Source: Dictyoglomus sp. (GTDB lineage Bacteria > Dictyoglomota > Dictyoglomia > Dictyoglomales > Dictyoglomaceae). From it: DNA of 64,000 nt. The stretch spans positions 62,001 through 126,000 of the forward strand of contig JANXBZ010000001.1 in the NCBI GenBank assembly GCA_025060475.1, written 5' to 3'. The notes below the pieces were generated by a model. That model made no database searches. It was not told the origin of the DNA and was given only the letters and a program-made list of their open reading frames with translations. The position numbers and the translations under genes were made by a program. This document shows positions 6,071-54,984 of this stretch, in pieces. How positions within the stretch are numbered: position 1 is the first letter of the stretch; the number at the start of each line of letters is the position of its first letter.

Positions 6071-6594
6071 TAATTTCCTCCTAATATAAAGGACAATCTT
6101 TTAATTATCCAATTTGCTAAAATTCCGTTAAAGGTTCCTGTAGTTATAGCAAATATTAATAAAAAGGGAATATAGAAAAAAATACTTTTATGAGAGATAA
6201 AAAAGGATACTATCATTAATTGAGAAATATTATGAGAAAGAGCACCAAGTATACTTATAAAAGTAAGGCTAAGATCCTTCTTATTAAACAAAAAACCCAT
6301 AGTTAAAGCGCTAATTATTCCCCCCATTAAACTTAGAAAAAAAGAAAAACCAAAAAGACCTCCTAATATCATATTCACAATCAATACTCTAAGAATAGAG
6401 ATAATTAATCCTTCTTTTAGACCCCACCAATAAATTCCTATCAAAGTTATTATATTAGCTATTCCAAGTTTTGCTCCTGGAAGCGAAGATAAAGGATTTA
6501 GAAATAATGCTTCTAAATAATATAATATACAAGCAAGAGAAATCATAATTCCTAAAAAAGAAACAAAGTATATTCTATTTTTAAATTTTATCAT
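6070..6594 (-). CDS. Gx transporter family membrane protein
   Basis: A 174-residue protein made almost wholly of membrane helices. The segment LSSLPGAKLGIANIITLIG and the later IISALTMG and GALSHNISQL are typical of the Gx transporter family (once named heptaprenyl diphosphate synthase component I), which is related to small-molecule S-component-like carriers. Genes of this family often lie next to ApbE and Rnf genes, as here: the start overlaps the apbE stop by four bases. A role in supplying a flavin or precursor to ApbE/Rnf is a guess from context; no substrate can be read from the sequence. Confidence 0.7.
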   Translation of the reverse strand: MIKFKNRIYFVSFLGIMISLACILYYLEALFLNPLSSLPGAKLGIANIITLIGIYWWGLKEGLIISILRVLIVNMILGGLFGFSFFLSLMGGIISALTMGFLFNKKDLSLTFISILGALSHNISQLMIVSFFISHKSIFFYIPFLLIFAITTGTFNGILANWIIKRLSFILGGN

Positions 6595-7577
6595 TTTTCT
6601 TCTTCAAAATAAATATTATCAGACTTCCAGATTTTTCCATCCTTTTCTACAATAATTACTCCGACATCTCTAAATTTACTTTTCCAAAGATCCTTTCCTC
6701 TTTCTCCTAAAACAAAAAATAAAGTTGATAAAGCATCTGCAGTAATTCCATTCTTACTTATGATAGTTACACTCATTATTTCCGAAGAAGGAATTCCTGT
6801 CTTAGGATTAATAATATGGGGATATCTTTTACCATTGTTTACAAAGAATCTTTCATAATCTCCCGAAGTAGCTACTACTCCACTTTTAATTTTTATTTTT
6901 CCAATAATTCTTCCTTCTTTTCTTGGATGTTTAATTCCAATTATCCAATAATCTCCTTTTAAAGGCTTACCGTATACCCCAATAGTTCCACCTATATCTA
7001 AATAAACTCTTTGCAAATTAAGATTTTTAGAAATCTCCAAAAGTCTTTGAACTGCATACCCTTTTGCAATTCCTCCTAGATCTAATGACATTCCTTTTCT
7101 TTTAAGTCTCACTTTTCCTTCAGATATTTCTAGATCTTTCCAATTTACTTTACTTAAGGCTTCTTTTAATTCTTTATCGTTAGGAATATACAAACTTCCA
7201 TTATAAAATCCCCATAATTCCATTAGAGGCCCTATAGTTGGATCAAATAGACCTTCGGAAATTTGAGCATAGTATTTTGCTTCCTTAAGAACATCTTCAA
7301 CTTCTTTAGAGACCTCTATCCAATCTCCTGCTTTTTTATTTATTTTATAAACTTCACTTTGGGGATTGAATCTATTTAACTTTTGATCTAGTTCTTCTAA
7401 TTTTTTCCAGCAAATCTCTTTTGCTTTTTCGCTATCCTTTCCCCAAAAATAAATAGTTATAAAGGTATCCATTAGGATACCACTTTTTTGAGCTTCATAT
7501 TTAGAAAAATTCTCCCTTATTAGATAGGCGCCTATTAAGATTATAAATAAAAAAATTAAGCTTTTTAAAACTCTCAT
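6591..7577 (-). CDS. apbE: FAD:protein FMN transferase (ApbE)
   Basis: A 328-residue protein with an N-terminal anchor helix (about 5-20). ApbE moves FMN from FAD onto Thr or Ser of target proteins outside the membrane, using Mg2+. Family patterns seen: GILMDTFITIYFWG near the start, SLDLGGIAKGYAV, YLDIGGT, ATSGDYERFF and PHIINPKTG, then VTIISKNGITADALSTLFFVLG with the metal-binding Asp. It starts at the last base of rnfB, so it is translated with the Rnf genes. Its likely targets are RnfG and RnfD encoded upstream in the same operon, both of which carry flavin-attachment motifs. Confidence 0.95.
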   Translation of the reverse strand: MRVLKSLIFLFIILIGAYLIRENFSKYEAQKSGILMDTFITIYFWGKDSEKAKEICWKKLEELDQKLNRFNPQSEVYKINKKAGDWIEVSKEVEDVLKEAKYYAQISEGLFDPTIGPLMELWGFYNGSLYIPNDKELKEALSKVNWKDLEISEGKVRLKRKGMSLDLGGIAKGYAVQRLLEISKNLNLQRVYLDIGGTIGVYGKPLKGDYWIIGIKHPRKEGRIIGKIKIKSGVVATSGDYERFFVNNGKRYPHIINPKTGIPSSEIMSVTIISKNGITADALSTLFFVLGERGKDLWKSKFRDVGVIIVEKDGKIWKSDNIYFEEEK

Positions 7578-8380
7578 TACTTAGTTTTTAATAGAATTAG
7601 AGCCTTTGTAGGACATTTTTCTACACAAATTCCACATCCATCACAGATTTCATAATTTATCATAGGAAGTCTTCCTTGCATTGTTATAGCCCCTTTTGGA
7701 CATACTCGAGTACATATTCCACAACCAATACAAGCTCTTGAACACACCTGTCTTGCATCAGGCCCAGGTAAAATTGTTTTACATCCTAAAAGTAAAGGGA
7801 TATTAATAGGAAGAAGAGTCAAAATTCCCCTTGGGCATTCCTTAACACATAAACCACATCCCGTACACTTCGTAGAATCAATCTTTGGAAGTCCATCTTC
7901 TCCCATATATATTGCAGAAAAAGGACAGACCATAACACAGTCTCCATATCCAATACATCCATTGGGACATCCTTTCTCTCCTCCCTGAGTTAGATGTGAG
8001 GCCCTACAAGTTTTGATTCCTTTATATATAAACCTATTAACAGCTATTTCCTTTCCACCTTGGCAATTTAAAAAGGCAATATTTTTAGTTATTGTAATTT
8101 CTTCCTCCAAGCCTAAAACTTTTGCTACTTCCTTTGCAACTTTTTCTCCTCCAGCAACACAACCAGTACTTTTAGCTTTCCCTTCTATAATTGCTTGAGC
8201 TAATCCTTCACATCCAGGGTAACCACAAGCACCACAGTTAGTTCCTGGCAAAACTTTTAATATCTCAGAAAGTCTTGGATCAATTTCCACAGCAAATTTT
8301 TTTCCTGCAAAAGCAAGAGTGCTTCCAAAAACTAATCCTATTCCTCCTAATACTAATGCTGCTAATAAGACTATACTCAT
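7577..8380 (-). CDS. rnfB: Rnf complex iron-sulfur subunit RnfB
   Basis: A 267-residue subunit that passes electrons from ferredoxin into the Rnf ion pump. It has an N-terminal membrane helix (about 3-25), then a cluster-binding domain with TNCGACGYPGCEGL (about 46-60), and then several ferredoxin-type Cys groups: GCPNGCIGYGDCVMVCP, CTGCGLCVKECP, CIGCGICTRVCP and CDGCGICVEKCP. This gives more clusters than a minimal RnfB and resembles the form found in clostridia and Thermotogales. It is the last rnf gene and is followed at once by apbE. The call rests on motifs and on the complete rnfCDGEAB order. Confidence 0.96.
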   Translation of the reverse strand: MSIVLLAALVLGGIGLVFGSTLAFAGKKFAVEIDPRLSEILKVLPGTNCGACGYPGCEGLAQAIIEGKAKSTGCVAGGEKVAKEVAKVLGLEEEITITKNIAFLNCQGGKEIAVNRFIYKGIKTCRASHLTQGGEKGCPNGCIGYGDCVMVCPFSAIYMGEDGLPKIDSTKCTGCGLCVKECPRGILTLLPINIPLLLGCKTILPGPDARQVCSRACIGCGICTRVCPKGAITMQGRLPMINYEICDGCGICVEKCPTKALILLKTK

Positions 8381-8393
8381 AATTTCCCTCCTT

Positions 8394-8981
8394 TTAATGT
8401 GCCATTCCTTGGAATCCTAAAAATACAAGAGCTAATAATCCAGAAGTTATAAAAACTAAAGGATAACCTTTCCAAAAATCAGGGATATCTGAAAAAGCTA
8501 ATCTTTCTCTAATAGCAGCTAAAAGAAGAAGAGCAATAGTATAACCCACTGAAACTCCTAAAGAATAAATAATAACTTCCAAAAGATTATAAGCCATATC
8601 TATATTAATAAAAGTTACACCTAAAATAGCACAATTTGTTGTTATTAATGGCAAATATATTCCCATAGCCCTATATAGATAAGGAGAAGTTTTTCTTATT
8701 ACCATTTCCACAAGCTGAACTAATGCAGCAATGACTAGTATAAAGGCTATTATTTTTAAAAATATAAGATTTAAAGGCTGTAATATGTAGTAATATATGA
8801 AAAAAGTCACAACAGAAGCCATGACTGTTACAAAAGTAACAGCAATACCCATTCCTATAGAGGCATCATATTGAGAAGTCATTCCTACATAAGAACATAA
8901 GGCTAAAAATCGCATAAAGACAATATTATCTACTAAGGAAGCAAATAAGAATAATGTAAACAATTTTCCTAAAATTACCAT
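8394..8981 (-). CDS. rnfA: Rnf complex membrane subunit RnfA
   Basis: A 195-residue protein with about six membrane helices. It shows the RnfA/NqrE pattern: LASLVDNIVFMRFLALCSYVG near the start, with the conserved Cys of the first half, and LPLITTNCAILGVTF in the middle with the second Cys, then AIRERLAFSDIPDFWKG near the end. RnfA and RnfE form an inverted pair that holds an iron centre between them in the membrane. It lies 13 bases after rnfE and 13 before rnfB, in the standard operon order. Confidence 0.96.
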   Translation of the reverse strand: MVILGKLFTLFLFASLVDNIVFMRFLALCSYVGMTSQYDASIGMGIAVTFVTVMASVVTFFIYYYILQPLNLIFLKIIAFILVIAALVQLVEMVIRKTSPYLYRAMGIYLPLITTNCAILGVTFINIDMAYNLLEVIIYSLGVSVGYTIALLLLAAIRERLAFSDIPDFWKGYPLVFITSGLLALVFLGFQGMAH

Positions 8982-8994
8982 AGCTTCCTCCTAA

Positions 8995-9633
8995 TTATTT
9001 ATCATGAGGAGTAAATACTTTTTTTGAGATATTCTTCTTAATCTCTTTCATAGACCAGTTTAGTATACCTATCAATAGACCGATCCCCCAAAAAGCCCCA
9101 GGAGGCATAATGAAAGCAAGGGCAGGCTTAAAAAAAGAGGGCATTATAGGAATACCAAGAAGAGTTCCTGATCCTAAAAGTTCTCTTATACCTGCCAAAA
9201 CTGTTATACTCCAAAAGTAACCTATACTCATTCCTAAACCATCAGCTATAGAATTCAGAATATTATTCTTATAGGCAAAGGCCTCAGCTCTTCCAATAAT
9301 AATACAATTAACAACAATTAAAGGAATGAAAATACCTAGAGAATGATGAAGTTCAGGCATATATGCAGACATTACTAAATCAGTTATAGTAGTAAAAGTA
9401 CCAATAACAATAATAAATATAGGAATCCTTATATTGTAAGGTATTATCGGTCTAAGCAAAGACACAAAAATATTTGAAAATATCATCACAAAGGAAAAAG
9501 CAAATCCCATACCAATCCCATTCGCTAAATTTGTAGTAACCGCAAGAACAGAACATAATCCTATCATCAATATTAATACAGGATTTTCTTTAAAAATTCC
9601 ATTTACGAAATTTACCCAAAATTCCCTTGCCAT
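8995..9633 (-). CDS. rnfE: Rnf complex membrane subunit RnfE
   Basis: A 212-residue protein with about six membrane helices, related to RnfA and NqrD. Typical segments are NPVLILMIGLCSVLAVT near the start, IRIPIFIIVIGTFTT, LIVVNCIIIGRAEAFAYKN in the middle and AGIRELLGSGTLLG further on, with the conserved Cys in the two half-helices. It forms the membrane core of the Rnf complex with RnfA. Its position between rnfG and rnfA is the usual one, with gaps of 13-15 bases and a Shine-Dalgarno sequence in each gap. Confidence 0.96.
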   Translation of the reverse strand: MAREFWVNFVNGIFKENPVLILMIGLCSVLAVTTNLANGIGMGFAFSFVMIFSNIFVSLLRPIIPYNIRIPIFIIVIGTFTTITDLVMSAYMPELHHSLGIFIPLIVVNCIIIGRAEAFAYKNNILNSIADGLGMSIGYFWSITVLAGIRELLGSGTLLGIPIMPSFFKPALAFIMPPGAFWGIGLLIGILNWSMKEIKKNISKKVFTPHDK

Positions 9634-9648
9634 AAAAACTCCCCCTTA

Positions 9649-10182
9649 TTAATCCTTAATGACTAAAGCTTCTTTTACAGCTCTTAGTACTGCCCTTGAA
9701 GATATGGTAGCTCCAGTAATAGGTTGAATATCTTTTTTAAGTTCCATATTAGGAGAATTCTTACCAATGAACTGATTTAAAAATTCATCTTTAGTTATTT
9801 CCGCTCCTAAACCTGGTGTTTCTTGTTGAGAAATAATCTTAACTTTTGTGATCTTTCCTAGAGTATCTATACCCACTAAAAGATTAATATCACTACTATA
9901 TCCTCGAATAACTAATTCAACAACTTTTCCAACTTTTTGATTATTATTTTTTCCTTCATATACTCCTATAATTTTAACCATTTTATCTTTAGGTTTAGGA
10001 ATATCACTAATATTATCAAAGTGTTTTGCCAGAGGTAAAATTTCCTGAAGGGCTTGAAGCTTTTCTTTTTCTTTTTGCATTGCAATAATTTTTTGAGTCT
10101 GAATATAAACATAGGCTAAAGCTCCTGCTGCTATAGCACATATTATCATAAGAATCACTCCATAGAGAACTATTTCTTTCAT
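9649..10182 (-). CDS. rnfG: Rnf complex FMN-carrying subunit RnfG
   Basis: A 177-residue protein with an N-terminal membrane helix (about 5-27) and an exported FMN-binding domain. The covalent FMN attachment motif TGATIS is at residues 156-161, with S161 the expected acceptor (Ser in place of the more common Thr). The upstream stretch QQETPGLGAEI is also conserved in the family. ApbE, encoded in the same operon, would attach the FMN. The start overlaps the rnfD stop by four bases. Confidence 0.95.
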   Translation of the reverse strand: MKEIVLYGVILMIICAIAAGALAYVYIQTQKIIAMQKEKEKLQALQEILPLAKHFDNISDIPKPKDKMVKIIGVYEGKNNNQKVGKVVELVIRGYSSDINLLVGIDTLGKITKVKIISQQETPGLGAEITKDEFLNQFIGKNSPNMELKKDIQPITGATISSRAVLRAVKEALVIKD

Positions 10183-11117
10183 TTCTTCACCTCTCCAAAT
10201 TTATGAGGCTTAATACTTCTATCTATTAAAGGTGTAAGAGCATTCATGACTAATATCCCATATGTAACACCTTCTGGATAACTTCCAAATATCCGAATCA
10301 TTAGAGTCAGAAAACCTGCACCAATTCCAAAAATTAATCTACCTTTAGGAGTTAAAGGTGTTGTTACCCAATCGGTAGCCATAAAGAAGGCTCCTAAGAA
10401 AACTCCACCTGATAAAATTTGAAATATTGGATCCTTTCTGAATAACAAAGATAAAACCATTATTGATAGGATATAACTAATTGGAATTCTCCAATCAATT
10501 ATATTCTTGTAAATAAGCCAAATACCCCCAATAAGTAGAAAAAGAGCAGAAGTTTCTCCTATAGATCCTGAAACTTTTCCTATAAATAAATCCCAGTAAG
10601 AAGGTAAAGAATAAGGTAACTTTAACTTTTCTATTGCTAGTGGAGTTGCTGTAGAAACAGGAGTGGCAGAAGTTAATGGGTTTATCCAAGAAGTCATAAT
10701 TACTGGATAAGAGGTTAATAGAAAAGCTCTACCTACCAATGCTGGATTTAAAAAATTCCCTCCTAATCCACCAAAAATTTGTTTTGTTAATATTATTGCT
10801 ACTCCTGTTCCAATCACAGGAATCCATAAAGGAACTCGTGGTGGTAAGGTTAAGGCTAAGAGTAAACCTGTAACCACCGCACTAAAATCTAATAAGCTAT
10901 TTAAAGATTTTCTTCTAATTAAAAGAGCTAATCCCTCCCACATAACTGCGGAAACTATGCTTACAAGTATAACAAACAATGAATAAATACCAAAAAAATA
11001 AATTCCTGCTATAGTAGCAGGAATAAGAGACATAATCACATTTAACATTACTTTACTCACATCTTCATCAGCGAAAATGTGAGGTGAAGAAGATACAATT
11101 AACTCTTTTTCTTCCAT
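10179..11117 (-). CDS. rnfD: Rnf complex membrane subunit RnfD
   Basis: A 312-residue protein of the NqrB/RnfD family with about nine or ten membrane helices. It shows SSSPHIFADEDVSKVM at the start, KQIFGGLGGNFLNPALVGRA in the middle and FMATDWVTTPLTPKGR near residue 245. The stretch VSTATPLA (154-161) fits the flavinylation motif, with T158 the expected FMN-carrying Thr. RnfD lies in the ion path of the pump. It follows rnfC with a 12-base gap and overlaps rnfG by four bases. Confidence 0.96.
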   Translation of the reverse strand: MEEKELIVSSSPHIFADEDVSKVMLNVIMSLIPATIAGIYFFGIYSLFVILVSIVSAVMWEGLALLIRRKSLNSLLDFSAVVTGLLLALTLPPRVPLWIPVIGTGVAIILTKQIFGGLGGNFLNPALVGRAFLLTSYPVIMTSWINPLTSATPVSTATPLAIEKLKLPYSLPSYWDLFIGKVSGSIGETSALFLLIGGIWLIYKNIIDWRIPISYILSIMVLSLLFRKDPIFQILSGGVFLGAFFMATDWVTTPLTPKGRLIFGIGAGFLTLMIRIFGSYPEGVTYGILVMNALTPLIDRSIKPHKFGEVKK

Positions 11118-11129
11118 AGGATATTCCTC

Positions 11130-12440
11130 CTATTTTCTTCGCTTTTCAAAAATCTCAGATTTTGCCATTCTAATCCACTGAACTAAAGGTCTTCTAGAGG
11201 GACAAATATAACTACATGAACCACACTCCATACAATCCAGTGCTCCTTCTTTTTCTGCTAATTCTGTTTTCCTCAAACGAGAATACTCCGCAATAACAGT
11301 TGGAATAAGATTCATAGGACATACATCAAGACATCTTCCACAGCGAACACACGCAAGAGTATCATTGTTCTTTATAAAACTTCGTGGAAAGACTAAAACT
11401 CCAGAGGTTCCTTTTACAATGGGAGTTGCTAGGCTGTAGATAGTTACTCCCATCATAGGACCACCAAATATTACTTTTCCAGGCACATCTGAAAATCCTC
11501 CACATTCTTCTATAAGCTTGAATACTGGAGTTCCAATGCGAACATTAAGATTCTTAGGCTCCTTAATACCCTCCCCTGTTACTGTTACACCTCGCGATAT
11601 TAGTGGTAATCCTGTCTTAAAATGTTCAGCTATTGCACATGCTGTTCCCACATTATTAACTATAACTCCTACATCTAGAGGGAGACCTCCAGAGGGTACT
11701 TCTCTTCCCAAAATAGCTTTTATCAATTGTTTTTCAGAACCTTGTGGGTATTTTGTCTTTAAAACTACTATTTCCATATCTTTTTTTAGATATTTCTTTA
11801 AAATCTCTCCTGCATCCTTTTTATTATCTTCTATGGCAATAATTCCTTTTTTCACCCCTAAAACATACATTAATATCTGAAGACCTTCTATAATCAATTC
11901 TGGTTTCTCTAACATTAAACGATAATCAATAGTTAAATAAGGTTCACATTCTGCTCCATTTAAAATTACAACATCAATTTTTTTTTCAGGAGGTGGAGTT
12001 ATTTTAACATGAGTAGGAAAAGCAGCACCACCTAATCCAACAATTCCTGCCTCTCTTATTTTTCTTCTTATCTCATCAGGAGATAGATTTTCCCAAGAAA
12101 TTGGAGAAATATCAGGAAAAACCTCATCCTTTCCATCACTCTCTATTTCTATTGTTAAAACAGGTTTTCCTGTGGGATGTGGATGAAAACCAATTTTTCT
12201 CACAAATCCTGAGGTAGGAGCATGAATCGGTGACGTCACAAAACTTTGTGCATCCCCAATTTTTTGGCCTTTATAAACATAGTCTTTTACTTTCACTAAA
12301 GGCTGAGCAGGAGCACCTGTATGTTGTTGAGTTGGAATAAAAAATCTTTCAGGTAAAGCGATAGAAGTTATTGGCGAAGATTTTGATAAATCCTTTTTTG
12401 TTGGAGGATGAACGCCACCACGAAAAGTTAAAAAACCCAT
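11130..12440 (-). CDS. rnfC: Rnf complex NADH-reacting subunit RnfC
   Basis: A 436-residue soluble subunit that exchanges electrons with NAD(H). The opening FRGGVHPPTKKDLS is typical, followed by a barrel-like domain, the GLGGAAFPTHVKI stretch of the FMN/NADH-binding part, a SLBB-like region, and two ferredoxin groups near the end (CVRCGRCLDVCP and CMECGSCSYICP). It is the first gene of the complete rnfCDGEAB set. It begins 17 bases after valS with no terminator in the gap, so the set seems to be transcribed with the tig-clpPX-valS genes. Confidence 0.96.
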   Translation of the reverse strand: MGFLTFRGGVHPPTKKDLSKSSPITSIALPERFFIPTQQHTGAPAQPLVKVKDYVYKGQKIGDAQSFVTSPIHAPTSGFVRKIGFHPHPTGKPVLTIEIESDGKDEVFPDISPISWENLSPDEIRRKIREAGIVGLGGAAFPTHVKITPPPEKKIDVVILNGAECEPYLTIDYRLMLEKPELIIEGLQILMYVLGVKKGIIAIEDNKKDAGEILKKYLKKDMEIVVLKTKYPQGSEKQLIKAILGREVPSGGLPLDVGVIVNNVGTACAIAEHFKTGLPLISRGVTVTGEGIKEPKNLNVRIGTPVFKLIEECGGFSDVPGKVIFGGPMMGVTIYSLATPIVKGTSGVLVFPRSFIKNNDTLACVRCGRCLDVCPMNLIPTVIAEYSRLRKTELAEKEGALDCMECGSCSYICPSRRPLVQWIRMAKSEIFEKRRK

Positions 12441-26020: not shown

Positions 26021-26033
26021 ATATTCGCCTTTT

Positions 26034-26064
26034 CAGGCTGGGGAATCCCCAGCCTGATTTTTTT
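26034..26064 (+). terminator. Strong intrinsic terminator between HU and gcvT
   Basis: An almost perfect palindrome (CAGGCTGGGG with CCCCAGCCTG, 26034-26056) is followed by seven T residues (26058-26064). The next gene, gcvT, starts only 18 bases later, with no promoter in the gap. Confidence 0.9.
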
Positions 26065-26081: not shown

Positions 26082-27173
26082 ATGGCAAAGAGGCTCTATT
26101 TAGAAGAAGAACATGCTAAATTAAACCCCAAATTTATAGAGTTTGCAGGATGGTATATGCCTTTAGAATACCAGGGAATAATTAAAGAACATCTTCAAGT
26201 AAGGACTAAATCAGGTATATTTGATATCTCTCATATGGGAAGAATAAGAATTAAGGGAAAAAGCTCTTATGAATTTCTTCAAAGAATTACCTCCAATGAT
26301 CTTGATAAATTATATCCAGGAAAAGCTCAATATTCCTTGATTTTATCTCCTAAAGGAACCATTTTAGATGATGTTATCCTTTACATGATAAATAAAGAAG
26401 AATACCTTTTAGTAGTTAATGCAGGAAATAAGGATAAGATTTTATCTTGGATAGAGGAGAATAAATCTAAGGATATTGAAATTGAGGATCAAAGTGAATT
26501 TCTGATCTTATTTGCATTACAAGGACCTTTATCAGAATCTATTCTTCAACCCCTCATAAAAGAGGACCTTTCAAAATTAAAATATTACCATTTTTATATA
26601 ACTCAAATATTTGAAACTCAAGTAATCCTTTCAAGAACTGGCTATACGGGAGAAGATGGCTTTGAAATTTTTATCCCCAAATATAAAGCTAAGGAGCTTT
26701 GGAGATACTTCCTAGAAAATCCCAATGTCCTTCCTTGTGGTCTAGGAGCAAGAGACTCTTTGAGAATAGAAATGGGATATCCTTTATATGGGCATGAAAT
26801 TGATGAAAATACAACTCCCTGGGAAGCTAATCTTTCTTTTACTGTAAAACTTGATAAATCTTATGATTTTATTGGAAGAAAGGCATTGCTCGAGTTAAAA
26901 GATAAAAAAACTAAATTTCTTATCGCCTTTGAACTTTTAGAGACGAGTATACCAAGAAAAGGACATGAAATTTTTTATAATGATGAAAAATTTGGCTGGG
27001 TCACTAGTGGTACTTTTTCTCCAATATTAAAAAAGGGAATTGGAATGGGATATTTAAAAAAAGAATTTCTAGAAGGAAATTTAGAGGTTGCAATTAGAGA
27101 CAAAAAAGTTAAGATAAAAATAGTTAAACTTCCATTTATTAAAAATACCTCAATTAAGAAAGGAGTGAAATAA
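26082..27173 (+). CDS. gcvT: Glycine cleavage system T protein (aminomethyltransferase)
   Basis: A 363-residue tetrahydrofolate-dependent enzyme that takes the aminomethyl group from the lipoyl arm of GcvH and gives methylene-THF and ammonia. Family patterns: EFAGWYMPLEY (about 20-30), GIFDISHMGRI (about 45), NDLDKLYPGKAQYSLIL (about 70), RTGYTGEDGFEIF (about 187), GARDSLRIEMGYPLYGHEI (about 223-241) and the C-terminal IPRKGHEI barrel. The length is normal. First gene of the gcv cluster, with SD AAAGGGGTGA close to the terminator hairpin. Confidence 0.97.
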   Translation: MAKRLYLEEEHAKLNPKFIEFAGWYMPLEYQGIIKEHLQVRTKSGIFDISHMGRIRIKGKSSYEFLQRITSNDLDKLYPGKAQYSLILSPKGTILDDVILYMINKEEYLLVVNAGNKDKILSWIEENKSKDIEIEDQSEFLILFALQGPLSESILQPLIKEDLSKLKYYHFYITQIFETQVILSRTGYTGEDGFEIFIPKYKAKELWRYFLENPNVLPCGLGARDSLRIEMGYPLYGHEIDENTTPWEANLSFTVKLDKSYDFIGRKALLELKDKKTKFLIAFELLETSIPRKGHEIFYNDEKFGWVTSGTFSPILKKGIGMGYLKKEFLEGNLEVAIRDKKVKIKIVKLPFIKNTSIKKGVK

Positions 27174-27551
27174 ATGTATCCTGAAGATAGAAAATATTCA
27201 AAAGAACATGAGTGGGTAAAAATAGAAGGCAAAGAAGCTATGATTGGAATCACATATTATGCTCAAAAAGAATTGGGAGATGTAGTTTATGTAGAGCTTC
27301 CAGAGCTTGGAAAAGAAATAAAGCAGGGAGAAGTTATTGCTACTTTGGAATCTGTAAAAACTGCGTCTGAAGTTTATTCTCCACTTTCAGGAAAAATTAT
27401 TAAAATAAATGAAAAATTAAAAGATAAACCTGAATTAATAAACGAAGATCCATATAACAATGGATGGATAGTAGTACTAGAAATCTCTAATCCCCAGGAA
27501 TATAATAATCTATTATCTTGTGAAGAATACAAAAAGTTTATAGAGGAATAA
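27174..27551 (+). CDS. gcvH: Glycine cleavage system H protein (lipoyl carrier)
   Basis: A 125-residue carrier protein. The lipoylated Lys is K62 in TLESVKTASEVYSP. Start MYPEDRKYSKEHEWV and end NPQEYNNLLSCEEYKKFI are typical. The ATG starts immediately after the gcvT stop. The octanoyl/lipoyl group would be made by LipB (54283) and, I infer, the two radical SAM proteins encoded at 30333-32101 in the same operon. Confidence 0.97.
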   Translation: MYPEDRKYSKEHEWVKIEGKEAMIGITYYAQKELGDVVYVELPELGKEIKQGEVIATLESVKTASEVYSPLSGKIIKINEKLKDKPELINEDPYNNGWIVVLEISNPQEYNNLLSCEEYKKFIEE

Positions 27552-27553
27552 AT

Positions 27554-28909
27554 ATGCCTTATTTTCCCCATACCTCAAAAGAAATAAAAGAAATGCTTGA
27601 TTTCCTGGGGATTAAAAGTATAGAGGAACTTTTTGAAGATATTCCAAAATCCATAAGAGAAAAGGCAAGAAAAAATTTTAAATTACCAGAAGCGTTATCA
27701 GAAATAGAAATTTACAAAAAAATAGAAGAAATTTCAAATAAAAATACGGGTAAAGATTATATATCCTTTTTAGGTGGAGGAGCATATTATCATTATATTC
27801 CTCCTGTTGTAAAGCATATCATATCATATCCTACTTTTTATACTTCCTATACTCCATATCAAGCAGAAATAAGTCAAGGATTTCTTCAAGCTATGTTTGA
27901 ATACCAAAGTCTTATATGTGAACTAACAGGTATGGAAGTCGCAAATTCCTCCTTATATGAAGCAGGTTCAGGAATAGCAGAAGCAAGTCTAATGGCTCAT
28001 AGAATAAATGGAAGAAAAGAGATCCTTATATCAAAAGGAGTTCATCCTGAATATAGAGAAGTTTTGAAAACATATATTAATGGTATGAAATTGAATTATA
28101 AGGAAATTTCTTTAGATGAAAAGGGAGAAACTGATCTAAATATTTTAAAAGAATCCTTGTCCAATGAAACCTCGTGTCTTATTATTCAAAGTCCTAACTT
28201 CTTTGGAGTAATAGAAACAAAACTTAAGGAAATTTCCGAATTGCTTCATCAAAACAATTCTTTATTTATTTGTAGTGTATATCCCATATCTCTTGGAATA
28301 TTAAAACCTCCAGGAGAATATAAGGCAGATATAGTAGTAGGAGAAGGCCAATGTCTTGGTTCTCCCCTAAACTTTGGTGGACCATATCTAGGAATATTTG
28401 CCACGAAAAGAGAATTTATAAGACAAATTCCAGGAAGATTGGTTGGAGAAACTAAGGATTTAGAAGGAAAAAGAGGTTATGTATTAACATTACAAACAAG
28501 GGAACAACATATAAAAAGATCAAGAGCAACCTCTAATATCTGCACCAATGAAGCCCTTACCGCTTTAGCAACTACTGTTTATCTCTCTCTTTTAGGGAAA
28601 AAAGGGCTAAGAAAAGTTGCGGAGTTGTGCTATGATAGAGCTCATTATGCCAAAAAAAGACTTTTAGAAAGCATTAATACACTAGAATTAACTTATCCTT
28701 CTTATTTTTTCAATGAATTTGTAATAAAACTTAATAAACCTGTAAAAACTGTTTATCAAGCCCTAAAAGATAAAAAAATTCTTGCTGGAATTCCCTTAGA
28801 AAAATTTTTTCCAGAAAGAGATAAAGAATTGCTTTTAGCTTTCACAGAGATGAACACTAAAGAAGAAATTGATTATCTAGTGAAAAGTATGAAGGAGGCC
28901 TTAGAATGA
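27554..28909 (+). CDS. gcvPA: Glycine dehydrogenase (decarboxylating) subunit 1
   Basis: A 451-residue N-terminal-type half of the P protein. Patterns: [17 protein letters not shown] at the start, [15 protein letters not shown] (about 74-88), [21 protein letters not shown] (about 97-117; the classical substrate/PLP region) and [14 protein letters not shown] (about 322). It binds with GcvPB to form the PLP enzyme that decarboxylates glycine. The split form is usual in Firmicutes, Thermotogales and archaea. It overlaps gcvPB by four bases. Confidence 0.97.
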
Positions 28910-30342
28910 AAGAAATTCCTTTATTATCAGAAATTTCTGAGGAAGGCAGAGAGACTATTTCTCTTCCCAATGATATTGAATTCTCTCCTTACAAAGAACT
29001 TCCAAAGGAACTCTTAAGGGAAAATTTACCTTTACCTCAAATAAGTGAAGTAGAAATAGTAAGACATTTTACAAACCTTTCTTTGAGAAACTTTGGGGTG
29101 GACTTAGGATTTTATCCTCTAGGTTCTTGTACGATGAAATATAATCCTAAAATAAATGAAGATTTAGCAAATCTTCCTGGGTTTACTAAGCTTCATCCCT
29201 ATACTCCTGAAGATTTAAGTCAAGGAGCTCTCCAAATAATTTATGAACTAGAAAAATTATTATGTAATATAACTGGAATGGACAGATTTACATTTCAACC
29301 TTCTGCTGGAGCCCACGGAGAACTTACGGGTCTTTTGATTATAAAGGCCTACTTAAAAGACAAAGGTGAGAATAGGAATACAGTATTAGTTCCTGACTCT
29401 GCTCATGGAACAAATCCTGCTAGTGCAGCTATGGCTGGTTTTAAAACTCTAGAAATTCCATCAGATGAAAGAGGATTAGTTGATCCTAATATACTAAAAA
29501 ACTACGTAAATGAAGATACAGCTGTATTAATGCTAACAAATCCTAATACTCTTGGCCTATTTGAAAAAGATATAGAAAAAATTGCAGACATCATTCATCA
29601 AAAGGGGGCATTATTATATTATGATGGTGCAAATTTAAATGGGATTATGGGATATGCAAGACCTGGAGATATGGGATTCGATGTAATTCATCTAAATCTC
29701 CATAAAACCTTTTCCACACCCCATGGTGGAGGAGGACCTGGTGCAGGACCTGTAGGAGTTAAAAGCTTTCTAACTCCTTATCTACCAAAACCCGTGGTAG
29801 ATTTTAACGGAGAAAAATATTACTTAAACTTTAATATTCCAAAAAGCATTGGAAGAGTTAGGAGTTTCTATGGAAATTTTTCTGTTATTCTTAAGGCATA
29901 TATTTATATCAGATTAATGGGAGAAGAAGGATTAAAGAAAACTACAGAGATGGCAGTACTCAATGCTAATTATCTAAAGGAAAAATTAAAAGCTATATTC
30001 TATCTTCCATATCCAACCCTATGCAAACACGAGTTTGTATTATCATGTAAAAAGCAGAAAGAAAAAGGAGTAAAAACTATAGATATTGCCAAAAGAATAT
30101 TAGATTTTGGAATTCATGCTCCAACTATATATTTTCCTTTAATAGTAGAGGAAGCCTTAATGATAGAACCTACAGAAACAGAGACAAAATATACATTGGA
30201 TAATTTTGTTTCTATTTTAGAGGAAATAAATAAAGAAATTGAAGAAAATATAGAGATAATAAAAACAGCCCCTCACAATACACCTATAAAAAGATTAGAT
30301 GAAACCTTAGCAGCTAAAAATTTAAAGGTAAAATGGGAATAA
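28906..30342 (+). CDS. gcvPB: Glycine dehydrogenase (decarboxylating) subunit 2
   Basis: A 478-residue half of the P protein that carries PLP. The Schiff-base Lys is K267 in [20 protein letters not shown] (the classical glycine-rich stretch). Other patterns: [15 protein letters not shown] (about 68-82), [10 protein letters not shown] (about 131) and [16 protein letters not shown] (about 164). The length is standard. Its stop overlaps the next radical SAM gene by 10 bases, so the latter is translationally close to the gcv genes. Confidence 0.97.
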
Positions 30343-31145
30343 CAATTGTAAAGCCTATAAACACATTACCTTTAAGTATAACTGGCGAAAAATGTGTTCT
30401 TAGATGTAATCACTGTAAAGGACACTATCTCAAAGGAATGATAGCTCTTTCTAAAGTTGAGAGAAAAATTCAGAAAAATAATTATAAAAGTATATTGATA
30501 AGTGGAGGATTTGACCTTAATGGAAAATTAGAAAACATATCTAAAGATATTTTAGAGAGCTTGAAAAAGAAAGGATTTAAACTAAACTGCCATTTAGGAC
30601 TAATTGGAGAAGAAGATATTAAAGATATTATGGGACTTATAGATGAAATTTCTTTTGATCTTATTTTAGATGAAGCTGTAATTCAAAAGGTTTTTCATCT
30701 AAAAAAAACTCCTGAAGATTTTAAAGATACTTTTAAACTTTTGAAAAATCACTTTTCAGTAAATCCCCATATAGTTGTAGGATTAAATTGTGGAAAAATT
30801 GAAAAAGAATATGAAGCCATTGATTTTTTGTCAAAATTTCAACCTCTAAATATAATTTTCATTATTTTTACTCCCATTAAAAATACTCCTATGGAACACA
30901 TTTCTCCACCTTCCATAAATATGCTTAAAAAATTTTTCCTTTATACAAAAGAAAAAATTCCAAAGGCAAATCTTTATTTAGGTTGTGTAAGACCATCTAG
31001 CGATTATAGAGAAAAAACTGATTTCTTAGCATATGAGCTAGGATTTAAAGCAATTGTAAATCCTCATCCCAAGGTTTTAGAGTACCTTAAAAAATCTGAT
31101 TTAATAGAAAATTATTTTTATGAATGCTGTGCATTTTTGAAATGA
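30333..31145 (+). CDS. Radical SAM protein, probable subunit of LipS1/LipS2-type lipoyl synthase
   Basis: A 270-residue radical SAM protein with the cluster motif C21-x3-C25-x2-C28 ([17 protein letters not shown]). Further Cys residues include GCVRPSSDY (about 228) and a CC pair near the end. It is encoded 10 bases inside the end of gcvPB and overlaps the next radical SAM gene by four bases. In Thermococcus kodakarensis two radical SAM proteins formerly annotated as biotin synthases together make lipoate from the octanoyl form and replace LipA. The gene pair, size, motif and place in the gcv operon fit that system. Which of LipS1 or LipS2 this is cannot be settled by eye. Alternatives: another GCS-linked radical SAM enzyme. 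Confidence 0.65.
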
Positions 31146-32101
31146 AAATTGGTATATCCTATGGATGCTTAGAAATTCTAAAGAAAGGTAAGATAAGAGA
31201 AGATTCGCCAAAAACTTTATATCTTCTGGCTTCAGGAAAATGTCAAAAAAACTGTGCTTTTTGTACTCAAGCAAGAGAAAGTAATGATAGTCTCTACCTT
31301 TCTCGAATAATATGGCCAAATATAGAAGAAGAGGAATTGTTTTCTCTATTAAAGGCAAAAAGAGATTTCTTCTATAGAATATGCATACAAACCACAAAAA
31401 CAGAATTTTGGAAAAAGAATATAAAATCTCTAATTTCTAAATTGAAAATATTTAATTTACCCATTTCTCTATCCGCGCCCGTGGAAAATATGAAGGAAGT
31501 CGATGAATTATTCGAATTAGGAATCGAAAGAATGAATATTTCTATTGATGTTGCTGATAGGGAGTTGTATTTTAAAATAAAAGAGCAATTATGGGAAGAT
31601 AAAATAAATCTAATAAAGAATGCAAGTAAGAAATATAAAGAAAGAATAACTACTCATATAATAGTTGGCTTGGGAGAGAAAGAGAAATTTCTATTAGAAA
31701 TAATTAATGAACTAATAAAGAATAAAATAACTATTGCTTTATTTGCCTTTACTCCATTACCAGGAACAAAACTAGAAAATAAAACTCCTCCAGATTACTT
31801 AACCTACAGAAAGATTCAGATTATAACTTTTCTTTTACAGAGAAATTTAATAAATTTTGAGAACTTGAGATTTGATAAAAAAGAAAGATTAATAATTGAG
31901 GACTGGTGGTTAAATAAATCTTACTATTACTTTCAAGAAATATTTTTAACTATGGGATGTCCTAATTGCAATAGACCTTATTATAATGAATCTCCAAGAA
32001 TAACTCCCTATAATTTCCCAAGAGAAATAAAACAAGAAGAAATAATTACGATAAAAAATCTTTTAAATAAAGGAAAATGTTTCAACTTAAGAAAAATTTA
32101 A
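31142..32101 (+). CDS. Radical SAM protein, biotin synthase-like, probable second subunit of LipS1/LipS2-type lipoyl synthase
   Basis: A 319-residue radical SAM protein, counted from the ATG at 31142, which overlaps the previous stop in an ATGA; an in-frame upstream ATG at 31124 is less likely. The cluster motif is C34-x3-C38-x2-C41 in GKCQKNCAFCTQAR, much like BioB. It also has FTPLPGTKLE (about 205) and a C-terminal CPNCNRPYYNESPRI (about 275) that may bind an auxiliary cluster, the sulfur source in such enzymes. Known: paired radical SAM proteins of this kind are lipoyl synthases in Thermococcus. Inferred: this pair lipoylates GcvH. A true BioB is unlikely, as no biotin genes are near. Confidence 0.65.
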   Translation: MKIGISYGCLEILKKGKIREDSPKTLYLLASGKCQKNCAFCTQARESNDSLYLSRIIWPNIEEEELFSLLKAKRDFFYRICIQTTKTEFWKKNIKSLISKLKIFNLPISLSAPVENMKEVDELFELGIERMNISIDVADRELYFKIKEQLWEDKINLIKNASKKYKERITTHIIVGLGEKEKFLLEIINELIKNKITIALFAFTPLPGTKLENKTPPDYLTYRKIQIITFLLQRNLINFENLRFDKKERLIIEDWWLNKSYYYFQEIFLTMGCPNCNRPYYNESPRITPYNFPREIKQEEIITIKNLLNKGKCFNLRKI

Positions 32102-52824: not shown

Positions 52825-52866
52825 AGGCGGCTGGGAAAAAAGGAACTCTCCCAGTCGCCTCTTTTT
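52825..52866 (+). terminator. Terminator hairpin, either of the binding-protein gene or within the MATE leader
   Basis: A 12-base stem (AGGCGGCTGGGA with TCCCAGTCGCCT, one mismatch) is followed by CTTTTTG. It lies downstream of the candidate MATE promoter and 29 bases before the MATE start, so it may both end the upstream transcript and act as an attenuator for MATE. Confidence 0.85.
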
Positions 52867-52894
52867 GTTAAAAATATTCATAGAGGTTTTTAAG

Positions 52895-54268
52895 ATGAAA
52901 GTTTTGGATTTATGGAATAATGGAGATATAAATATAAGAAAAAGGTTATTAAATCTTGCTATTCCTGTTTTTATAGAAAACATCTTTCAACTCTTATTCA
53001 GTTTTGTAGATATGTTTTTTGTAGGATTCTTAGGAAATGTTGCTCTCTCAGCTGTTGGATTAGGAGGTCAAATAGTCAATATATTCATAGCTATATTAGC
53101 CTCTCTAACTACAGGAACTTTAGTAATGATAGCTCACAGCATTGGGGCTAAAAAGTACAAAGCTGCTCAAGATTATCTTAGAAATTCACTATCTCTTGGA
53201 ATAGTTTTATCAACATTCTTGTTTCTCTTTGGACTTTTTTTTATAGATCCTTTTTTATCTCTTTTAGGAGCTAAAGAAAGTTTAGCAAGGCTTACGTCTA
53301 TGTATCTTAAATACATACTAATTCCTGGATTTCTCCTCGTTTTTATCCCTATAATTTCCGCTGGTTTAAGAGGGGCAGGAGATACAAAGACACCTTTATA
53401 TGTGACTATAGTGGCTAATATTTTAAACATATTTGGAGATTACGTTTTAGTCTTCGGAAAACTAGGTTTTCCTGCTATGGGAGTTGCTGGTGCTGCATTA
53501 GCTTCTTCTCTATCAAGATTTATTGCTTTAATCTATCTTTTTATTATTTTATATCACAAAAGTTCCCTATTTAATTTTCGACTTATGGAAATATTAAATC
53601 TTCAAAAGGAAAAAATGTTTCAAATATTAAAAATAGGAATTCCTACTTCTCTAGAGCAATTATTTTTTTCAATTGGAGCTTTAATTTATGCTACAATTGT
53701 TCTTCAATTAGGCACAAAGGCCTATGCTGCACATAGAATTGCATTAAATATTGAATCTTTATCTTTTCAGCCAGGGTTTGCTTTTGCTGTTGCCGTAACA
53801 ACTCTTGTGGGACAATTTAGAGGAGCTAAAGAAGATGATAATGCCTACAAAGCTTCTCTAGAAGCCTGGAAAATTGCTGTAACTTTTATGGGAATAATAG
53901 GAGTAACTTTATTTTTGTTTCCTGTATATTTAGTAAAGATATTCAGTAGAGAAAAAGATGTTATAAATATGGCAGTTTTAGCACTAAAGATTATTGCTTT
54001 TATACAGCCCTTATTAGCTACTAATATGGTTATGGCAGGTTCTCTAAGAGGATCTGGGATGTCAAAACTCCCTATGATTTCCAATGGCTTGGGAATGTGG
54101 CTCATTAGAATTCCGCTTACATATTTTTTTATAAATATAATGAAAGTAGGCTTTCCTGGCGCATGGATTGCAATGGCACTTGATATAACCTTTAAAGCTC
54201 TTGTAAATTTCTATTTCTTCGTTATAAGAAAATCTTGGAAAAAGTTAGTAGTAAAGGTATCCCTTTAA
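52895..54268 (+). CDS. MATE family efflux transporter
   Basis: A protein of about 457 residues with about twelve membrane helices in two halves. Typical: FIENIFQLLFSFVDMFFVGFLG near the start, RGAGDTKTPLYVTIVANILNIFGDYVLVFG (about 160-190, split) and SLRGSGMSKLPMISNG near residue 385. It exports drugs, cations or metabolites using Na+ or H+. The start at 52895 is chosen because of AGAGG upstream; the longer TTG start would begin in the terminator T-tract. The substrate is unknown. Confidence 0.92.
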   Translation: MKVLDLWNNGDINIRKRLLNLAIPVFIENIFQLLFSFVDMFFVGFLGNVALSAVGLGGQIVNIFIAILASLTTGTLVMIAHSIGAKKYKAAQDYLRNSLSLGIVLSTFLFLFGLFFIDPFLSLLGAKESLARLTSMYLKYILIPGFLLVFIPIISAGLRGAGDTKTPLYVTIVANILNIFGDYVLVFGKLGFPAMGVAGAALASSLSRFIALIYLFIILYHKSSLFNFRLMEILNLQKEKMFQILKIGIPTSLEQLFFSIGALIYATIVLQLGTKAYAAHRIALNIESLSFQPGFAFAVAVTTLVGQFRGAKEDDNAYKASLEAWKIAVTFMGIIGVTLFLFPVYLVKIFSREKDVINMAVLALKIIAFIQPLLATNMVMAGSLRGSGMSKLPMISNGLGMWLIRIPLTYFFINIMKVGFPGAWIAMALDITFKALVNFYFFVIRKSWKKLVVKVSL

Positions 54269-54282
54269 GGAGAGTCTAAGAC

Positions 54283-54984
54283 TTGATTTTAAAAGTTTTA
54301 GATTTACCCTGTTTAGAATATAGAAAGGCTTGGGACTTACAAAAGTTTCTCCATTCTTATAGAGTAAAAGAATGTATTCCAGATGTTCTTATTCTTTTAG
54401 AGCATCCTCCAGTAATAACCTTAGGAAGATTTGGAAAATTGGAAAATCTTTTAAAATCAAGGGAAGAATTAGAAAGATTAAAAATAGATTTCTATAAAAT
54501 TGAAAGGGGAGGAGATATAACTTACCATGGACCTGGACAACTCATAGGATATTTTATTTTTAAGATAAAAAGTATAAAAAAACTAATCTTCTCTGTGGAA
54601 GAATCAATTCAGAAACTTTTAAAAAAATATGGAATAAACTCTCAAATCCTAGAAAAATATCCTGGAGTTTGGATAGAAGATAAGAAAATTTGTTCTATTG
54701 GTATGACAGTAAGAGCGGGGGTCTCTTTTCATGGCTTTGCTTTAAATATAACCAACGATTTAACTCCCTTTTCTTATATTATTCCTTGTGGTCTAAAAGA
54801 TAAAAAAATCACTTCAATATATGAAGAGACAAAAATTTCTCTTCCTTTAATAAAAGTAAAGAGAGATTTTGTAGAAATTTTCTTTCAAATTTATGGCTTT
54901 GAAAATTTTGTTATTATTGATACTTTTGACGATAAGGTAGACCAAAACCTCGAAAAGCTTTTGGAGGTCCTAAAATCTCCATAA
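54283..54984 (+). CDS. lipB: Lipoyl(octanoyl) transferase LipB
   Basis: A 233-residue enzyme, TTG start after AAGGAGAG. It moves the octanoyl group from acyl carrier protein to target Lys, such as K62 of GcvH. Motifs: LLEHPPVITLGRFG (about 38-51), ERGGDITYHGPGQLIGYF (74-91), the Lys K135 in KKICSIGM and the Cys C169 in IIPCGLKDKKITSI. No LipA gene is next to it, in contrast to many genomes. It would provide the substrate for the two radical SAM proteins at 30333-32101. The 3' end overlaps a convergent gene by 71 bases. Confidence 0.95.
   Translation: MILKVLDLPCLEYRKAWDLQKFLHSYRVKECIPDVLILLEHPPVITLGRFGKLENLLKSREELERLKIDFYKIERGGDITYHGPGQLIGYFIFKIKSIKKLIFSVEESIQKLLKKYGINSQILEKYPGVWIEDKKICSIGMTVRAGVSFHGFALNITNDLTPFSYIIPCGLKDKKITSIYEETKISLPLIKVKRDFVEIFFQIYGFENFVIIDTFDDKVDQNLEKLLEVLKSP

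What the first reader, a model, noticed from the sequence alone, without database searches (positions are those of the whole stretch)
30333..32101. Tandem radical SAM genes in the gcv operon: a bacterial LipS1/LipS2-type lipoyl synthase
Two consecutive radical SAM genes follow gcvPB with 10- and 4-base overlaps. Both have CxxxCxxC motifs; the second is BioB-like and has an extra CPNC near its end. In Thermococcus kodakarensis two such proteins, once annotated as biotin synthases, replace LipA. The window has GcvH and a LipB octanoyltransferase but no LipA. Together they would form a complete lipoylation route in a bacterium: LipB plus a two-protein synthase, cotranscribed with the lipoylated target.
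Basis: partly seen in the sequence, partly recalled or inferred. Interest (0 to 1): 0.78.

Follow-up and report, generated by a model that had tools for sequence, protein, structure and literature searches.

The report
Two-protein lipoyl synthase in Dictyoglomota
Two neighbouring genes in the glycine-cleavage operon of a Dictyoglomota bacterium encode LipS1 and LipS2, a known two-protein replacement for the usual lipoyl synthase LipA; the enzymes are a described kind, and only their pairing with the octanoyltransferase LipB as the sole route of a whole phylum adds something modest.

Summary
ORFs 30333-31145 and 31142-32101 follow gcvPB with 10- and 4-base overlaps and both carry CxxxCxxC. They pass the curated NCBIfam cut-offs for LipS1 (248 against 230 bits) and LipS2 (311 against 270). 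They fail the BioB and LipA cut-offs. Every residue shown by mutagenesis to matter in the Thermococcus enzymes (radical-SAM Cys triad, auxiliary-cluster Cys, His of LipS1) is present, and invariant across the distant bacterial relatives sampled.

LipA is absent from the window's genome (99.6% complete) and from all seven Dictyoglomota genomes, two of them single-contig. gcvPB-lipS1-lipS2 synteny holds in six. LipB in the window is a true LipB, and ACP, GcvH, an E2 and dihydrolipoamide dehydrogenase are encoded.

However, bacterial LipS1/LipS2 is already published (Tanabe 2023; Neti 2022), including octanoyltransferase-fed versions, named there with LipM. What remains is the pairing: LipB with LipS1/S2 and no LipA was seen only in Dictyoglomota among the LipS2-positive genomes sampled. 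The other LipA-less ones carry LplA/LipM-type proteins instead.

Verdict: new member of a known kind, with a slightly unusual partner. Activity is untested.

The parts
26033..26057 (+). terminator-like hairpin (11-pair stem, T-run) between the upstream small HU-type DNA-binding ORF and gcvT; likely upstream boundary of the gcv-lipS operon
26082..27173 (+). gcvT, aminomethyltransferase
   Evidence: TIGR00528 390 bits, cut-off 235.85
27174..27551 (+). gcvH, lipoylated H protein (target)
   Evidence: TIGR00527 162 bits, cut-off 115.85
27554..28909 (+). gcvPA, glycine dehydrogenase subunit 1
   Evidence: NF001696 631 bits, cut-off 364
28906..30342 (+). gcvPB, glycine dehydrogenase subunit 2
   Evidence: NF003346 750 bits, cut-off 441
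30333..31145 (+). lipS1, radical SAM lipoyl synthase subunit 1 (predicted second, C6 sulfur insertion); Cx3Cx2C C21/C25/C28, auxiliary ligands C218, C265, C266, His146
   Evidence: NF053742 248.4 bits, cut-off 230; invariant residues
31142..32101 (+). lipS2, radical SAM lipoyl synthase subunit 2 (predicted first, C8 sulfur insertion); Cx3Cx2C C34/C38/C41, auxiliary ligands C81, C273, C276, invariant His172
   Evidence: NF053743 311.2 bits, cut-off 270; invariant residues
32077..33474 (+). next overlapping gene (poly(A) polymerase / CCA-transferase-like by sequence reading), also next to lipS2 in relatives; probably in the same transcript, not part of the lipoylation route
54283..54984 (+). lipB, octanoyl-ACP:protein octanoyltransferase (predicted supplier of octanoyl-lysine)
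   Evidence: TIGR00214 155 bits, cut-off 83.55; PDB 2qht E 9e-51 with aligned Lys and PCG Cys motifs; LipB clade

Best explanation
The two genes encode LipS1 and LipS2, which together replace LipA. Inferred route: LipB (54283-54984) moves octanoate from octanoyl-ACP to the lipoyl lysine of GcvH (and probably of the E2 subunit encoded elsewhere in the genome). LipS2 then inserts sulfur at C8 and LipS1 at C6. Each uses a radical-SAM [4Fe-4S] cluster to make a 5'-deoxyadenosyl radical and sacrifices an auxiliary [4Fe-4S] cluster as sulfur source. lipS1/lipS2 are co-expressed with the glycine cleavage genes. Shown here: family membership, ligand residues, absence of LipA, synteny, and the presence of LipB, ACP, GcvH, E2 and E3. 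Inferred: activity, reaction order (transferred from Thermococcus), octanoyl source, co-transcription.
For: Both pass curated equivalog cut-offs, while BioB scores 61 against a 225 cut-off and LipA 16 against 310 for LipS2. The mapped ligands of T. kodakarensis LipS1 (C27/31/34, C230, C276, C277, H159) and LipS2 (C39/43/46, C85, C276, C279; PMC9585515) have matching residues at matching spacing, and all are invariant in the distant bacterial rows wherever the row covers the position. LipA: no match over cut-off in 7 of 7 Dictyoglomota genomes, against 10 of 14 control genomes over it; the only weak hit in the own genome is a MiaB-like protein. gcvPB-lipS1-lipS2 synteny in six genomes. True LipB. 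ACP, lipoamide dehydrogenase, GcvH and E2 as targets.
Against: No biochemical evidence in this organism. lipB is 22 kb from the operon. The own genus has an additional LplA-like protein (L044) that might attach octanoate or lipoate. AlphaFold models are only moderate (pLDDT 70.1 and 68.5), with the cluster loops unresolved, so cluster geometry was not tested.
Confidence: 0.93

Rival explanations
1. The second gene is a biotin synthase (BioB) and the first an unrelated radical SAM enzyme, sitting by chance next to gcv genes.
For: LipS2 is BioB-like: bioB profile E 1.1e-16, and 8vdw biotin synthase is the only PDB sequence match, E 3.3e-07.
Against: BioB score 61 bits against a 225 cut-off, LipS2 311 against 270. 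The BioB CSGG strand reads TTHI here. The LipS-type auxiliary Cys are present. gcv and lipS1 synteny is conserved.
Confidence: 0.02
2. LipS1/LipS2 are the lipoyl synthase, but octanoate (or lipoate) is attached mainly by the second LplA-like protein of this genus, giving a ligase-type route, with LipB serving another lipoyl domain.
For: L044 (226 aa) has the LplA-B_cat domain and ligase-like RRxSGGG and KISG motifs, 84.8 bits to lipoate-protein ligase. Most published bacterial LipS1/S2 systems pair with Lpl(AB) (PMC10332631).
Against: L044 is far below the ligase cut-off (280) and lacks the accessory domain. The two single-contig genomes of the sister genus have LipB only, with the same lipS operon.
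Confidence: 0.12
3. The genes are pseudo- or repurposed paralogues and the organism scavenges lipoate.
For: No activity data.
Against: Intact frames, all ligands conserved and synteny kept across two genera at 49-70% LipS1 and 54-59% LipS2 identity, implying purifying selection. The sister genus has no ligase to scavenge with.
Confidence: 0.02

Closest known systems
LipS1/LipS2 of Thermococcus kodakarensis (PMC9585515)
   Same: Two radical SAM proteins, same profile families, same radical-SAM and auxiliary-cluster ligand set at matching spacing; GcvH as likely target.
   Different: Bacterial host; genes joined to a full gcv operon; octanoyltransferase LipB instead of the bipartite LplAB ligase.
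Bacterial sLpl(AB)-LipS1/S2 pathway of sulfur oxidisers (Tanabe et al. 2023, PMC10332631)
   Same: Bacterial LipS1/S2 synthase acting on octanoylated carrier protein.
   Different: No sLpl(AB) ligase; GcvH-linked rather than sHdr/LbpA-linked; no LipA in the phylum.
LipM plus LipS1/S2 genomes (Schekmanbacteria, Synergistota, Thermotogota; PMC10332631)
   Same: Transferase-fed LipS1/S2 without ligase.
   Different: Transferase here is LipB (clade 1 of that paper), not LipM.
LipB/LipA pathway of E. coli
   Same: LipB step.
   Different: LipA replaced by a two-protein synthase of very different sequence; opposite order of sulfur insertion predicted (C8 first).

Membership tests
LipS1 lipoyl synthase (NF053742) | Passes curated equivalog cut-off | tested here: met
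   248.4 bits against 230
LipS1 lipoyl synthase (NF053742) | Cx3Cx2C plus auxiliary ligands equivalent to TK C230, C276, C277 and H159 | tested here: met
   C21/25/28, C218, C265, C266, H146, invariant wherever the row covers the position
LipS1 lipoyl synthase (NF053742) | Converts 8-mercaptooctanoyl-lysine to lipoyl-lysine | not testable with these tools
   needs in vitro assay
LipS2 lipoyl synthase (NF053743) | Passes curated equivalog cut-off | tested here: met
   311.2 bits against 270
LipS2 lipoyl synthase (NF053743) | Cx3Cx2C plus auxiliary ligands equivalent to TK C85, C276, C279 | tested here: met
   C34/38/41, C81, C273, C276, invariant wherever the row covers the position
LipS2 lipoyl synthase (NF053743) | Inserts sulfur at C8 of octanoyl-lysine | not testable with these tools
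   needs in vitro assay
Biotin synthase BioB (TIGR00433) | Passes curated cut-off | tested here: not met
   61 bits against 225
Lipoyl synthase LipA (TIGR00510) | Passes curated cut-off; N-terminal Cx4Cx5C | tested here: not met
   16.1 bits against 310; no Cx4Cx5C in either sequence; no LipA over cut-off in the genome
Octanoyltransferase LipB (TIGR00214), ORF 54283-54984 | Passes cut-off; conserved Lys and PCG Cys; groups with LipB not LipM/Lpl | tested here: met
   155 bits against 83.55; alignment to 2qht; tree 100/100
sLpl(AB)-LipS1/S2 pathway | Lpl(AB) ligase accompanies LipS1/S2 | tested here: not met
   no full Lpl(AB); LipB only in the two single-contig sister-genus genomes; a short LplA-like protein in the own genus

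The most novel reading that the evidence does not exclude
A whole bacterial phylum (Dictyoglomota) depends on LipB feeding LipS1/LipS2, with no LipA and, in the sister genus with single-contig genomes, no ligase or LipM at all: a pairing of the classical bacterial transferase with the archaeal-type synthase, serving both GcvH and a 2-oxoacid dehydrogenase E2.
Probability: 0.75. Interest if true: 0.4.

Novelty: new member of a known kind. Interest (0 to 1): 0.3.

Why it matters
It extends LipS1/S2 as a sole lipoyl synthase to a phylum not mentioned in the main texts I could read, and supplies a minimal thermophilic LipB plus LipS1/S2 set. That set would test whether LipS2 accepts octanoyl domains made by LipB. 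The conserved His of LipS2, aligned with the LipS1 His proposed as a cluster ligand, gives a concrete candidate for the unassigned fourth auxiliary-cluster ligand.

Tried and rejected
BioB and LipA identities were rejected on cut-offs and motifs. The weak LipA hit in the genome is MiaB-like. The PF03099 hit is a BirA-like biotin ligase. The genome-contig scan with the Dictyoglomota LipS2 alignment returned only two loci, both very close relatives, so distant relatives came from the genome search instead. No LipS2 relatives on plasmids. No Rfam match in the operon. Promoter-like sites were no more frequent than in shuffles. AlphaFold models from 2- or 3-row alignments had poor cluster loops; Foldseek gave generic radical SAM matches (HydE, BioB, human LIAS), consistent with the fold but not decisive.

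Full report
WHAT IS THERE. The window lies in a 1.72 Mb, 99.6% complete genome of the phylum Dictyoglomota. A contig that matches relative G001 in length and match position is titled Dictyoglomaceae (L051). After a strong terminator-like hairpin at 26033-26057, gcvT, gcvH, gcvPA and gcvPB follow, then two radical SAM genes with 10-base (30333-30342) and 4-base (31142-31145) overlaps.

IDENTITY. Against NCBIfam, protein 1 scores 248.4 bits to LipS1 (cut-off 230) and protein 2 311.2 bits to LipS2 (cut-off 270). Protein 2 reaches only 61 bits to BioB (cut-off 225) and 16 to LipA (cut-off 310). Both models are curated equivalogs.

RESIDUE TEST. Neti et al. (PMC9585515) mapped essential residues of the T. 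kodakarensis enzymes: LipS1 C27/C31/C34, C230, C276, C277 and H159; LipS2 C39/C43/C46, C85, C276, C279. The window proteins have counterparts at matching spacing: LipS1 C21/C25/C28, C218, C265, C266, H146; LipS2 C34/C38/C41, C81, C273, C276. The correspondence was made by motif and spacing, since the Thermococcus sequence itself was not in hand. In alignments of 27 rows each (some rows repeat a locus or are fragments) from Dictyoglomota and distant bacteria, these are exactly the Cys that never vary where the row covers the position. Profile alignment places LipS1 H146 on LipS2 H172, which is also invariant. In the alignment with biotin synthase 8vdw this strand carries the BioB CSGG segment. 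H172 is therefore a candidate fourth ligand of the LipS2 auxiliary cluster; this is inference.

NO LIPA. The lipA profile finds only a MiaB-like protein in the genome and nothing over cut-off in seven Dictyoglomota genomes, two of them single contigs, while 10 of 14 control genomes pass the cut-off. From memory, the contig lengths 1,959,987 and 1,855,560 fit D. thermophilum and D. turgidum.

CONSERVATION. gcvPB, lipS1, lipS2 and the following poly(A) polymerase-like gene keep their order in six Dictyoglomota genomes of two genera (in one, split over contig ends). The seventh is 72% complete and lacks LipS2 in the assembly.

OCTANOYL SUPPLY. ORF 54283-54984 is a LipB: TIGR00214 155 bits against 83.55, and aligned to the LipB structures 2qht/2qhs (E about 1e-50) including the Lys and PCG-Cys motifs. 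In the tree it falls in a 100/100 clade with other LipBs, apart from LplA/LipM types. Single-contig genomes G003 and G004 have one LplA-B_cat protein only, this LipB. The window's own genus has a second, 226-residue LplA-like protein (L044-L046) of unknown role. ACP, lipoamide dehydrogenase and a second lipoyl target, a 322-residue E2, are encoded.

HOW COMMON. In a sample of 386 genomes, 20 had LipS2 at E<=1e-50, 14 of them outside Dictyoglomota. Nine of these 14 lack LipA at E<=1e-20. The representatives of those nine that were scanned have LplA/LipM-type proteins and none matches the LipB profile; L068, L081 and L083 were placed by the tree and motifs only. The two LipB-bearing outsiders (G048, G325) also have LipA. 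So LipB plus LipS1/S2 without LipA was seen only in Dictyoglomota here. This is a small sample.

WHAT IS KNOWN. Tanabe et al. 2023 (PMC10332631) proved LipS1/S2 lipoylation in bacteria, mapped it over GTDB, and described LipM with LipS1/S2 in some phyla without ligase. LipA co-occurrence is called common in LipS1/S2 bacteria. Their main text does not mention Dictyoglomota or name LipB with LipS1/S2; the supplementary tables, which may list it, could not be opened. Neti et al. reported that bacterial LipS1/LipS2 neighbourhoods include GcvH.

VERDICT. The find is a new member of a known kind, with a less usual octanoyltransferase partner. Steps shown: sequence membership, residues, gene content, synteny. 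Steps inferred: activity, order of sulfur insertion, co-transcription, LipB as supplier.

Noticed in passing
L044:1450-2130 (own genome, contig C12): Second LplA-like catalytic-domain protein (226 aa, no accessory domain, motif KISGCGSYL) in all three genomes of the window's genus but absent from the single-contig sister-genus genomes; could be a ligase or an amidotransferase between GcvH and E2.
   Followed up: partly
L048:763-1728 (own genome, contig C9): Short E2 (322 aa) with lipoyl and catalytic domains but no E3-binding domain hit, next to an E1-like gene.
   Followed up: partly
31142-32101: LipS2 H172 is invariant in distant LipS2 proteins and aligns with LipS1 H146 (TK H159), a candidate fourth auxiliary-cluster ligand.
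   Followed up: partly
52865-54984: A MATE-type transporter-like gene precedes lipB and this neighbourhood is conserved in Dictyoglomota.
   Followed up: no
7577-12440: Rnf-type electron transport cluster, with an ApbE-like flavin transferase gene (6591-7577) beside it; in other bacteria (L052-L054) lipS2 sits next to an rnfC-like gene.
   Followed up: no
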